The notes beneath the pieces are model-generated. The model saw only the letters and a list, made by a program, of their open reading frames with translations. It had not been told where the DNA came from and did not search any database. A DNA stretch of 64,000 nt, from assembly GCF_001277175.1 (NCBI RefSeq), contig NZ_CP012257.1, positions 496,001 through 560,000 on the forward strand, written 5' to 3'. Origin of the DNA: Cronobacter universalis NCTC 9529 (GTDB taxonomy: Bacteria; Pseudomonadota; Gammaproteobacteria; Enterobacterales; Enterobacteriaceae). This document shows positions 2,432-62,507 of this stretch, piece after piece; position 1 is the first letter of the stretch, and each line of letters opens with the position of its first letter. Made by a program: the position numbers and the translations under genes.

Positions 2432-2809
<378 letters not shown>

Positions 2810-2814
2810 TTAGA

Positions 2815-2838
2815 AAACCCCGCTCCGGCGGGGTTTTT
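2815..2838 (+). terminator. rnpB intrinsic terminator
   Basis: AACCCCGC and GCGGGGTT form a stem around a short TCCG loop, followed by TTTTT, directly after the mature 3' end of RNase P RNA. Confidence 0.9.
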
Positions 2839-2857
2839 GCTTTTATTGGTAGTGCAA

Positions 2858-2920
2858 AGATGAATGACTGCCCACGACGCTTTCTATGAAAAGCACGCGG
2901 CTTACCGGTCAGCTTCACTT
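2858..2920 (+). repeat. Partial duplication of the rnpB 3' end
   Basis: AGATGAATGACTG-CCACGAC and then GGCTTACCGGTCAGCTTCAC repeat the last roughly 60 nt of rnpB, with a diverged middle (GCTTTCTATGAAAAGCACG in place of AGAACC). It begins about 20 bp past the rnpB terminator. E. coli is known to have repeated copies of the rnpB 3' segment downstream of the gene. Here the copy has no good terminator and marks the left edge of the AT-rich islet. I found no third copy at the right side of the islet. Confidence 0.85.
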
Positions 2921-3336
2921 CATATGAAAATTACTTACATGAATTTAATGAAGAGTACATATATCAAATGCTAATGTTTTTAGCATTCATTATATATCTT
3001 GCGATATTTGTTTTCTTTTTGTTTTGAACATGGTTTATTCCATTACAGGAAGCAGCATGATTGTTACTTCAGCGATAATGATTTTTAGAATGGCAAAGGG
3101 TTAGGAAAGGATTTTTCAAGCGAGTATATGCTATTTGTCTTCTGCCACCTGTTGTCTAAGTAAAGTCTTCGCAATATTTAAATATTCCTATAACACTTTA
3201 AAAGGAACTATTCCAGATAAAATTAAATGATGTCCTATAACTTCATTATTAATGAATTGTGAGCGCATTCAAAGAATTTTCTTTGTAGGAGCGAGATATT
3301 TGTTTTCCCACTAGTGCCATTAAGTTAGGAGGAAAA
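2921..3336. other. AT-rich gene-poor stretch upstream of the beta-family gene
   Basis: These 416 bases are much richer in A+T than the flanking chromosome and hold no convincing gene. At 2968-3027 there is a tiny open frame encoding an all-hydrophobic 19-residue peptide without a clear Shine-Dalgarno (see findings). The right end carries AGGAGG at 3327-3332, the ribosome site of the next gene. Many -10-like AT runs occur, so no promoter can be picked out with confidence. Confidence 0.6.
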
Positions 3337-4437
3337 ATGGCAAATATCTCTTATATTCCAATACTTAAAACGAAAAGGGCGGAATTCACTGCACTCGCAC
3401 AGCTTACTCCAAGCGTTAAAGAAAAAATCTCACCTTTACTTGAAATTGAACCAGTTCCTATCGATCCAGATACTGAGATACCTGACAAAACATATGATGA
3501 AATGCTTGACGGTTTTGGACAAAAAGTTGCTGCGGCATGTTCCGCTATGCCCTCGGTTTTTTTAGATGGTCTTCTTATAGAAGAGGAGTTTATATCGCCC
3601 CAAGATACCTATCCATTTATAAATGCAGTAAGTCAATTACGCTCGACAGGAATGCATGTAATACCTGTTACATCTCCGACAAGAACACAAAACTATCGTA
3701 ATGCTGTAGATTTTATTCTGGATAATGAAGTTTGCTTAAGGCTCACCACTGTAGATCTTGTAAATCCACAACTGATTTCTTCGTACATACATCATCTAAA
3801 ATTACTTCCTCATCAAATTGATGTTGTAATCGATTTAAGAGATATGTTAACAGAGGAAAGTATTAACGCTGGAACTATCAAGATTATGGCTCTCGGACTT
3901 ATCAATAATCTCCAGCATATTTCAAGTTTTAGAACAGTTGCTCTTGCATGTGGTTCATTTCCAGTTGATTTAAGTAATATCTCGGTAGGTATTTATTCGC
4001 AGCAAAGGCTCGAATGGACTCTTTGGCAAGATTTGCATGCTAATGGCCAATTAGTCAGACAAATGGTATACAGCGATTATGGAATTCAGCACCCCGAATA
4101 CACTCGCTTAGCGACTCGCTTTCCAAGTGCTACTGCAAGTGTACGTTATACAGGTGATAATGATTTCTGGGTGTTTAGAGGGAAAGTAGCAACTCGATAT
4201 GGCTATGAGCAATACGGGGCACATAGCCAAGCAATCATTGCTCATCCAGAATATCCTGGTGCTGGTTTCTGTACTGGAGATCAAGATATAGCTACCTATG
4301 CTCAAGTTTACGCTGCTTATCAGCTAAATCCGTCACCTGCACATAAGTTTGGTAGCGCAGAAGTATGGCGCAGGATTGGTCAAAATCACCACATTACAAA
4401 GGTCGTATATCAACTCGCCAATCTTTACGGGCTTTAA
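3337..4437 (+). CDS. Beta-family protein (Pfam Beta_protein type), function unknown
   Basis: This 366-residue soluble protein has no signal peptide or membrane segment. It opens MANISYIPILKTKRAEFTAL, the usual start of the family named after the phage T4 beta protein: a YIPILKTKxAE motif, then KEKISPLLEIEPVP, a central IDVVIDLRDM strand and a C-terminal half rich in aromatics (ASVRYTGDNDFWVFRG). An ideal AGGAGG is 4 bp before the ATG. Codon use is AT-rich, unlike the flanking genes, suggesting transfer. Its last 44 bp overlap the 3' end of an sce7726-family gene on the opposite strand; from memory, these two families are often neighbours. No catalytic motif is evident. Family assignment is from recall of the motif, not a search. 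Confidence 0.8.
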   Translation: MANISYIPILKTKRAEFTALAQLTPSVKEKISPLLEIEPVPIDPDTEIPDKTYDEMLDGFGQKVAAACSAMPSVFLDGLLIEEEFISPQDTYPFINAVSQLRSTGMHVIPVTSPTRTQNYRNAVDFILDNEVCLRLTTVDLVNPQLISSYIHHLKLLPHQIDVVIDLRDMLTEESINAGTIKIMALGLINNLQHISSFRTVALACGSFPVDLSNISVGIYSQQRLEWTLWQDLHANGQLVRQMVYSDYGIQHPEYTRLATRFPSATASVRYTGDNDFWVFRGKVATRYGYEQYGAHSQAIIAHPEYPGAGFCTGDQDIATYAQVYAAYQLNPSPAHKFGSAEVWRRIGQNHHITKVVYQLANLYGL

Positions 4438-4975
4438 GGGTTGCACGCACGAAAGCACGCAATTCGTCTGTTGGTAGAGTATCTGCTAGAAGCGCCCATA
4501 AATATTTACGCGGTTTACTTTTTAAACCGCGATCTTGCCCTAATCCTTTCAGGATTGACAATAATTCATCTTTCCACAAAAGCATAGACAAAGACAATTT
4601 ATCTATATTTGGGTTGCGTTTATCAGCACGAACGGTTTGTAAATGTATGCCGTTTCGCAATCCTTGATTTGCAATTTTTACGCCCCACCATATGGGTATT
4701 ATGTTAAGTGCCGATTCAGCATGACATTCTGAAACAACTAAGGTTACTTTATCCATAACGGATGAATAGTGTTCTATTTGCGCAGGTAGTCTAAGTAAAT
4801 TATCACTCTTACTTTTCAGCTCGTAACCATGCATTAAACCATTGATTACAGCAATATCTGCGCGTCCTGCACCCAGATTAATTGTAAATTCATCAATAAT
4901 GAGTGTATCAGGGTCTTTATGGTGTTCCTTAAGAATTTTGCTGTGTACAGCTCTTCTTACATCGATATCTCTCAT
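4394..4975 (-). CDS. sce7726-family protein, predicted PD-(D/E)XK nuclease
   Basis: A 193-residue protein. The start MRDIDVRRAVHSKILKEHH is the hallmark of the sce7726 family. A restriction-like core is visible: Glu29, Asp40 (GRADIAV), Glu52-x-Lys54 (YELKSKSD) and Gln66-x3-Tyr70 (QIEHY). This matches the E/D/ExK/QxxxY order of RecB-type nucleases, so DNA or RNA cleavage is predicted but not shown. The ATG at 4975 is the first possible start because an upstream ATG in another frame stops at once; only a weak Shine-Dalgarno is seen. It is transcribed leftward and ends inside the last 44 bp of the convergent beta-family gene. AT-rich like its partner, it is probably part of the same accessory module. 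Confidence 0.8.
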   Translation of the reverse strand: MRDIDVRRAVHSKILKEHHKDPDTLIIDEFTINLGAGRADIAVINGLMHGYELKSKSDNLLRLPAQIEHYSSVMDKVTLVVSECHAESALNIIPIWWGVKIANQGLRNGIHLQTVRADKRNPNIDKLSLSMLLWKDELLSILKGLGQDRGLKSKPRKYLWALLADTLPTDELRAFVRATLKARKDWRVDIRPL

Positions 4976-5276
4976 TTTTTAACCATGCAATAACGCTCAA
5001 AGCGCCCCATCTAGCGGTGTGTCCGGGTTGAATCTTGTAGATTGTATAGCACAGTTTTTTGAAGCGCTACTGGGCTAGTCTCACACTTCGGTGCATCATA
5101 ACGACAATGAATACATGTTTTTAAAGAATTTTTTATGGAAAAATTTCGTTTTTAATCGAAGCAATTTGTAAAGGCAGCATGAATCCCTTCTTTAGAAGGG
5201 AACAAATATTGGGGGAATGCTAAAAATTTGTAGACTCAGAGGAGGCGAGCCATCCGGCCCGCCCGGTAAGCGTACG
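4976..5276. other. Non-coding right flank of the accessory islet
   Basis: About 300 bases without a gene. This should hold the promoter of the leftward sce7726 gene and the 3' region of leftward yhaL. A short perfect palindrome, CCCTTCT-TT-AGAAGGG, lies at 5188-5203 without a T-run on either side. Base composition changes from AT-rich to the GC-rich chromosomal level at about 5230-5270, which I take as the islet boundary. No tRNA, integrase or rnpB repeat is visible here. Confidence 0.55.
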
Positions 5277-5453
5277 TCAGGCGGCTTCTTCCTCGGCCAG
5301 GCGTACTTCGGCTTCAGCGATAATGGCTTCCAGCTCGCTGAGCATGCAATCGTAGGTAAACTCTGGTTGCGCTCCGGCGCGTGTATGCGCTTCCTGCGGG
5401 GCGGGTGATACAGTCAACTTCGTGACTTTCTTTTGCTGTGTGATAGTACTCAT
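5277..5453 (-). CDS. yhaL: Small conserved protein YhaL
   Basis: A 58-codon protein, MSTITQQKKVTKLTVSPAPQ..., with C-terminal half YDCMLSELEAIIAEAEVRLA then EEEAA. It aligns with the C-terminal block of E. coli YhaL (YEEMLSELEAIVADAETRLA, 54 residues). The first half is basic and variable; the second is acidic and helical, probably amphipathic. AGGAG lies 8 bp before the ATG. It sits 35 bp downstream of yhaK on the same strand, as in E. coli. Function is unknown. A longer frame on the opposite strand is a shadow of this gene. Confidence 0.85.
   Translation of the reverse strand: MSTITQQKKVTKLTVSPAPQEAHTRAGAQPEFTYDCMLSELEAIIAEAEVRLAEEEAA

Positions 5454-60992: not shown

Positions 60993-62507
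<1,515 letters not shown>

What the first reader, a model, noticed from the sequence alone, without database searches (positions are those of the whole stretch)
2840..5270. AT-rich islet with a convergent, 3'-overlapping beta-family / sce7726-family gene pair
Two poorly characterised families sit alone in a sharply AT-rich islet between rnpB and the conserved yhaL. Their genes run tail to tail and share 44 bp of coding sequence on opposite strands. Complete overlap of two 3' ends is hard to keep unless the genes move and are selected together, and each transcript is antisense to its partner's end, which could balance expression. One product is a predicted nuclease; the other has no catalytic motif and might recognise, inhibit or target. 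No integrase or transposase accompanies them. A two-component defence or toxin-neutraliser module is a plausible but unproved reading.
Basis: partly seen in the sequence, partly recalled or inferred. Interest (0 to 1): 0.78.

Follow-up and report, generated by a model that had tools for sequence, protein, structure and literature searches.

The report
Tail-to-tail beta/sce7726 nuclease gene pair
Two genes on opposite DNA strands share their last 44 letters; the same overlapping pair recurs in distant bacteria and phages, a related pair belongs to a known phage-defence system, and this is probably a stripped-down two-gene version whose function has not been tested.

Summary
An AT-rich islet (2919-5231) carries a PF14350 "beta" gene (3337-4437 +) and an sce7726 gene (4394-4975 -) overlapping tail to tail by 44 bp. 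They are homologues of beta and cII of the P4 anti-phage system gop-beta-cII; beta also resembles component C of PD-lambda-2. The upstream genes of both systems (gop; HigB-like and XRE-peptidase) are absent here. The convergent pairing is conserved: 11 of 13 beta-bearing genomes (398 searched) and 5 of 8 (369 searched) have sce7726, always adjacent and convergent; so do 79 of the 80 closest viral sce7726 loci and 15 of 15 plasmids with beta. A beta His codon and an sce7726 Arg codon lie exactly 37 nt apart in 31 of 46 clusters (15 of 25 lineages under 40% beta identity). All 20 beta genes tabulated have an M78 peptidase gene upstream, sce7726 downstream, or both. Best reading: a minimal two-gene defence module; anti-phage activity is inferred, not shown.

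The parts
2432..2808 (+). rnpB (RNase P RNA), left neighbour
   Evidence: Rfam RF00010, 329.7 bits
2858..2918 (+). partial copy of the rnpB 3' end; left edge of the islet
   Evidence: 27 nt at 93% and 21 nt at 95% identity; such copies are normal in the genus
2919..5231 (.). AT-rich islet, GC 0.375
   Evidence: junctions against sister species L020 and GC minimum of the window
3252..5089 (.). stretch shared with the Phytobacter massiliensis pair (L165), 78.8% identity: likely extent of the transferable unit (inference)
   Evidence: blastn
3337..4437 (+). beta family gene, 366 aa, predicted TIM barrel
4394..4975 (-). sce7726 / cII family gene, 193 aa, predicted PD-(D/E)XK nuclease
   Evidence: NF033832 187 bits; PADLOC cll 96.5 bits; AlphaFold pLDDT 93.2; nuclease fold matches
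4394..4437 (.). 44-bp antisense coding overlap of the two 3' ends, codon phase 123:132
   Evidence: in ten related pairs fewer synonymous changes than in the codons before it
4390..4392 (+). beta His352 codon, left anchor of the 37-nt register
4427..4429 (-). sce7726 Arg183 codon, right anchor of the 37-nt register
   Evidence: read from the sequence; this flank is conserved in five sister species

Best explanation
The islet holds a two-gene core (beta plus sce7726) of a family of phage- and plasmid-borne systems that includes the published defence systems gop-beta-cII of satellite P4 and PD-lambda-2. SHOWN by computation: the two genes are partners (co-occurrence, adjacency, fixed orientation, and in most lineages sampled a base-exact overlap register); sce7726 has the PD-(D/E)XK nuclease motif and predicted fold; beta is a conserved protein with a predicted TIM barrel, and each of 20 beta genes tabulated has an M78 peptidase gene upstream, an sce7726 gene downstream, or both; the window pair is of the sce7726-only class. 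INFERRED: beta is the constant hub that senses infection and controls a partner. In this two-gene form the only candidate effector is the sce7726 nuclease, which beta holds inactive or directs and which cuts phage (or cell) DNA on infection. The overlap is an ancestral, frozen register: both C-termini are constrained, so neither gene is easily lost or swapped without damaging the other.
For: Families and P4 homology. Published activity of relatives: gop-beta-cII protects against lambda and P1 (PMC9122126, passages); PD-lambda-2C, P4-beta-related, is needed for defence against lambda-vir (PMC9519451, passages). Partnership: 5 of 8 beta genomes among 369 and 11 of 13 among 398 also have sce7726, all 5 and all 11 adjacent and convergent (Fisher p 5.5e-8 and 3.2e-17; the samples share some genomes); 79 of 80 viral loci (the 80 best of 214); 15 of 15 plasmid records with beta; 5 of 5 phage records with beta. 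Register: 37 nt in 31 of 46 clusters and 15 of 25 lineages; phase 123:132 in 39 of 42 overlapping clusters against 46% for E. coli convergent overlaps over 4 bp (PMC2174442, passages). Nuclease: E29, R38, D40, E52, K54, Q66 invariant and Y70 nearly so, fold. Beta contexts: 7 M78 only, 5 sce7726 only, 8 both, 0 neither (Pfam support). Mobile settings of relatives. Constraint on both genes.
Against: I found no published phenotype for a gop-less, M78-less pair. The published systems contain further genes absent here; this genome has no match to P4 gop or PF06114 (the gop search had no positive control). In PD-lambda-2 the beta-like C is not needed to neutralise the toxin, so a simple antitoxin role for beta is not general. 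Beta also occurs without sce7726 (3 of 8 and 2 of 13 genomes, plus one of two copies in G672). Neighbouring defence genes were not sought: only the two proteins were scanned with PADLOC. Among the 13 pairs from the genome samples the 37-nt register holds in 6, so it is common, not universal; P4 has a 27-bp gap.
Confidence: 0.6

Rival explanations
1. Beta is itself the enzyme or signal-handling component: a TIM barrel with a polar centre at the strand ends makes, binds or removes a small molecule or modifies nucleic acid, and sce7726 is gated by it or cuts what it has not marked (signalling or restriction-like logic rather than toxin-antitoxin).
For: TIM-barrel model; E16, D166, D247, H352 invariant and D77 in 94% of 32 betas including P4; D77, D166 and D247 are the last residues of predicted strands 74-77, 161-166 and 244-247. 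The nuclease fold matches include Can2 and Card1 in complexes with cA4.
Against: A shared fold shows no function; the best Z (12.3) is to a designed barrel and no single enzyme family stands out; residue clustering was inferred from strand ends, not measured, as no coordinates were available. In P4 beta is reported as a neutraliser of gop.
Confidence: 0.2
2. A selfish addiction pair: sce7726 is a toxin, beta its antitoxin, kept because loss kills the cell; any phage effect is incidental.
For: gop is toxic without beta in P4 (as cited in PMC9122126); beta genes sit on prophages and plasmids; no beta without a partner gene in 20.
Against: Convergent genes on separate transcripts are unlike classical toxin-antitoxin operons (established knowledge); sce7726-family genes occur without convergent beta in 15 loci listed, several of them duplicates and most of the sce7725 type; close relatives of the window's beta are few (cluster of 3 member sequences on 6 contigs).
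Confidence: 0.15
3. A decayed remnant of gop-beta-cII that lost gop.
For: Homology to the P4 genes.
Against: Both genes are full length, with dN/dS near 0.05 (dS near saturation) and intact nuclease residues; the window's beta lies in a supported 12-row clade of phage and viral-contig pairs in which no gop match was found upstream, away from P4 beta, so absence of gop seems the normal state of the lineage.
Confidence: 0.04
4. The overlap is kept because antisense transcription tunes the two genes against each other.
For: No terminator-like site was predicted in the overlap, so transcripts may run into each other.
Against: No expression data; a register locked by two constrained C-termini explains persistence without regulation; P4 and several other lineages have a gap or another register.
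Confidence: 0.1

Closest known systems
gop-beta-cII of satellite phage P4
   Same: beta (PF14350) and cII (sce7726) genes adjacent and tail to tail; non-essential cargo of a mobile element
   Different: P4 has gop directly upstream of beta and a 27-bp gap instead of an overlap; its beta is 20% and its cII 24-25% identical
PD-lambda-2 (HigB-like, XRE-peptidase, beta-like C)
   Same: beta gene; the best PADLOC match of the window's beta is PD-Lambda-2_C, 134.8 bits
   Different: no HigB-like and no XRE-peptidase gene here; a convergent sce7726 gene instead. Rhizobiaceae plasmids carry an XRE-M78 gene, beta and sce7726 together
Beta/sce7726 pair of Rac-type prophages (Rac-SA53; 93 of 5426 complete E. 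coli genomes)
   Same: two-gene form, convergent, 41-bp overlap, same 37-nt register
   Different: 63.6% (beta) and 69.8% (sce7726) identity; lies in a prophage, not in a chromosomal islet
sce7726-sce7725 operon, in some loci with a RES-domain gene
   Same: sce7726 domain with a partner that shows beta-like N- and C-terminal motifs
   Different: same strand, sce7726 domain inside a ~300-aa protein; relation of sce7725 to beta rests on 33 aligned columns

Membership tests
gop-beta-cII system | beta-family gene | tested here: met
   PF14350 192.6 bits; PADLOC P4-type 'beta' only 17.8 bits
gop-beta-cII system | cII/sce7726 gene convergent to beta | tested here: met
   PADLOC cll 96.5 bits; orientation as in P4
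gop-beta-cII system | gop gene upstream of beta | tested here: not met
   longest ORF in 2919-3345 is 31 aa; no gop match in the genome, without a positive control
gop-beta-cII system | protection against lambda and P1 | not testable with these tools
   needs plaquing assays
PD-lambda-2 | beta-like component C | tested here: met
   PDLC03984 134.8 bits
PD-lambda-2 | HigB-like A and XRE-peptidase B genes upstream | tested here: not met
   no such ORF upstream in the islet; no PF06114 match in the genome although 7 of 14 control genomes ring
NF033832 sce7726 family | score above curated cut-off | tested here: met
   187 bits, cut-off 70
PF14350 Beta_protein | score above gathering cut-off | tested here: met
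   192.6 bits, cut-off 27
PD-(D/E)XK nuclease superfamily | core fold and D..ExK..Q motif | tested here: met
PD-(D/E)XK nuclease superfamily | metal-dependent DNA or RNA cleavage | not testable with these tools
   needs biochemistry
TIM-barrel proteins | (beta-alpha)8 fold | tested here: met
Toxin-antitoxin system | one product toxic, neutralised by the other | not testable with these tools
   needs expression tests
sce7726-sce7725 operon | collinear genes with an NF033831 partner | tested here: not met
   genes convergent; the window's beta gives no NCBIfam match at E up to 1

The most novel reading that the evidence does not exclude
Beta is an active or ligand-binding TIM barrel that gates the sce7726 nuclease, a two-protein defence logic in which the barrel is the sensor or signal enzyme and M78 peptidase, gop or sce7726 are interchangeable partners; and the pair carries what may be one of the deepest antisense coding overlaps in bacteria (no survey was made here), its register kept to the base in pairs from Actinomycetota, their phages and Pseudomonadota.
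Probability: 0.25. Interest if true: 0.82.

Novelty: new variant of a known kind. Interest (0 to 1): 0.62.

Why it matters
If true, a two-gene, 1.6-kb unit is the core of defence systems that are now listed apart (gop-beta-cII, PD-lambda-2), and beta is their common hub. That makes a simple test possible: which partner does the killing, and what does beta sense? A base-exact antisense register among betas with a median identity of 25% and a minimum of 16% looks unusual: a survey of convergent overlaps longer than 60 bp found 54 that might be real, most conserved only in very close species (PMC2478687, passages; the window's overlap is shorter, 44 bp). It offers a natural case of how overlapping genes become locked together.

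Full report
OBSERVATION. The two ORFs, their strands and the 44-bp overlap are as described. The islet spans 2919-5231: in a sister species (L020) the flanks, about 95% identical, close over it, some 2313 bp being replaced by about 49 bp. GC is 0.375 against 0.577 for the window, the lowest of any stretch of that length. In four other sister genomes the same rnpB-to-yhaL interval holds other short cargo (two of them, L019 and L023, share a related 178-aa gene), so this is a variable site. The rnpB 3' repeat at the left edge is a normal genus feature.

WHAT THE GENES ARE. The + gene is a full-length Beta_protein (PF14350, 192.6 bits); its best PADLOC model is PD-Lambda-2_C (134.8 bits), with a weak match to P4-type beta (17.8 bits). 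The - gene is sce7726 (NF033832, 187 bits) and matches PADLOC cll (96.5 bits); tblastn finds P4 cII at 25% identity. In P4 the order is gop, beta, then convergent cII with a 27-bp gap. From passages read: gop-beta-cII protects against lambda and P1, and gop was shown earlier to be toxic without beta (PMC9122126); PD-lambda-2C is related to a P4 antitoxin, is not required to neutralise the toxin, and is required for defence (PMC9519451).

PARTNERSHIP. In 369 class-level genomes beta occurs in 8 and sce7726 in 8, both in 5; in 398 phylum-level genomes beta occurs in 13 and sce7726 above cut-off in 14 (19 at E <= 0.001), both in 11. In all 5 and all 11 the genes are adjacent and convergent by the coordinates listed (Fisher; the two samples share some genomes). 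All 15 plasmid records with a beta match have sce7726 next to it on the other strand; 44 records match sce7726. All 5 phage records with beta have it too; 13 match sce7726. Of 80 viral sce7726 loci (the best of 214), 79 have convergent beta, some cut by contig ends, 78 of them overlapping by 11-122 bp; L071 has a 14-bp gap and L066 no beta.

REGISTER. All loci fetched by then give 123 pairs, 46 clusters at 90% beta identity; 42 overlap, 39 of these in codon phase 123:132. In E. coli 46% of convergent overlaps over 4 bp are in that phase (PMC2174442, passages). The distance from the codon of beta His352 to that of sce7726 Arg183 is exactly 37 nt in 31 of 46 clusters. Without one fragment (L110), 45 clusters fall into 25 groups under 40% beta identity; 15 groups have the 37-nt register. 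These include Gordonia and Mycolicibacterium phages, a Rhodococcus plasmid, Rhizobiaceae plasmids and an Acinetobacter plasmid. Within the 37-nt set overlap lengths differ because the tails beyond the anchors differ. Exceptions matter: P4 and its tree neighbours (130-348 nt), the L068/L077 group (76 nt) and others use another spacing; among the 13 pairs from the genome samples 6 have 37. On the beta tree the label needs 4 changes against a shuffled mean of 12.7. Ten related pairs show fewer synonymous changes in the overlap (149 of 436 codon comparisons) than in the 60 codons before it (813 of 1505), as dual coding predicts.

MODULARITY. Of 20 beta genes found by searching genomes for beta alone (two further fragments in G770 left out), 7 have an M78 (ImmA/IrrE) peptidase gene directly upstream only, 5 a convergent sce7726 only (the window among them), 8 both, none neither. 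The M78 model used there was built partly from these same loci. Pfam puts 12 of the 15 upstream genes over its cut-off (one, L133, by 22.5 against 22); L147 is just under (21.0); L135 and L149 were not scanned with Pfam and rest on the home-made model, in which they were not included. In P4, gop takes the upstream place. So beta is the constant part and partners vary.

SETTING. The closest named relatives outside the genus sit next to a resolvase gene (Phytobacter, L165), near a primase-type gene (Cedecea, L166) and beside an Rz lysis gene (Xenorhabdus, L167); the Tatumella locus (L168) was not typed. Rac-type pairs occur in 93 of 5426 E. coli genomes. In the window no mobility gene remains. 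The genus is probably Cronobacter (inference: a 97% sce7726 match is named Cronobacter malonaticus).

MECHANISM AND VERDICT. That the two proteins act together is well supported (about 0.9). That they defend against phages or rival elements is the best reading by homology and setting (about 0.65). That sce7726 is the effector and beta the restraint or sensor is a guess guided by P4 and PD-lambda-2 (about 0.5). The pair lacks the defining further genes of both named systems, so it is filed as a new two-gene variant, not as a member of either.

Noticed in passing
L131:6087-7986 (own genome, outside the window): A second sce7726 gene, here collinear with an sce7725 gene, about 16 kb beyond the window end; ORFs on both sides look like tyrosine integrases by eye.
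   Followed up: partly
L139:4122-7004; also L153, L155, L156: sce7726-sce7725 followed by a third gene; in L139 it has a RES domain (PF08808), and the cut third genes of the other three start alike by eye.
   Followed up: partly
L019, L021, L022, L023 between rnpB and yhaL: The rnpB-yhaL interval of sister genomes holds other short cargo: a 178-aa protein (L019, L023), a 371-aa plus DUF4926 218-aa pair (L021), a 265-aa plus 114-aa pair (L022).
   Followed up: partly
window 2432-2918 and L019-L023: Tandem repeats of the rnpB 3' end vary from one to six extra copies among the six same-genus genomes searched.
   Followed up: no
window 3067-3080 and 5312-5325: Exact 14-bp direct repeat CTTCAGCGATAATG, one copy in the islet, one in the flanking yhaL gene; chance or a relic of insertion.
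   Followed up: no
window 61752-61946 +: Match to Rfam RF02850 (Yersinia sRNA 276), 188.4 bits.
   Followed up: no
L025:2321-2716: The small gene ahead of the XRE-M78 gene on this Rhizobiaceae plasmid matches DUF6932 (PF22014), not a HigB family.
   Followed up: no
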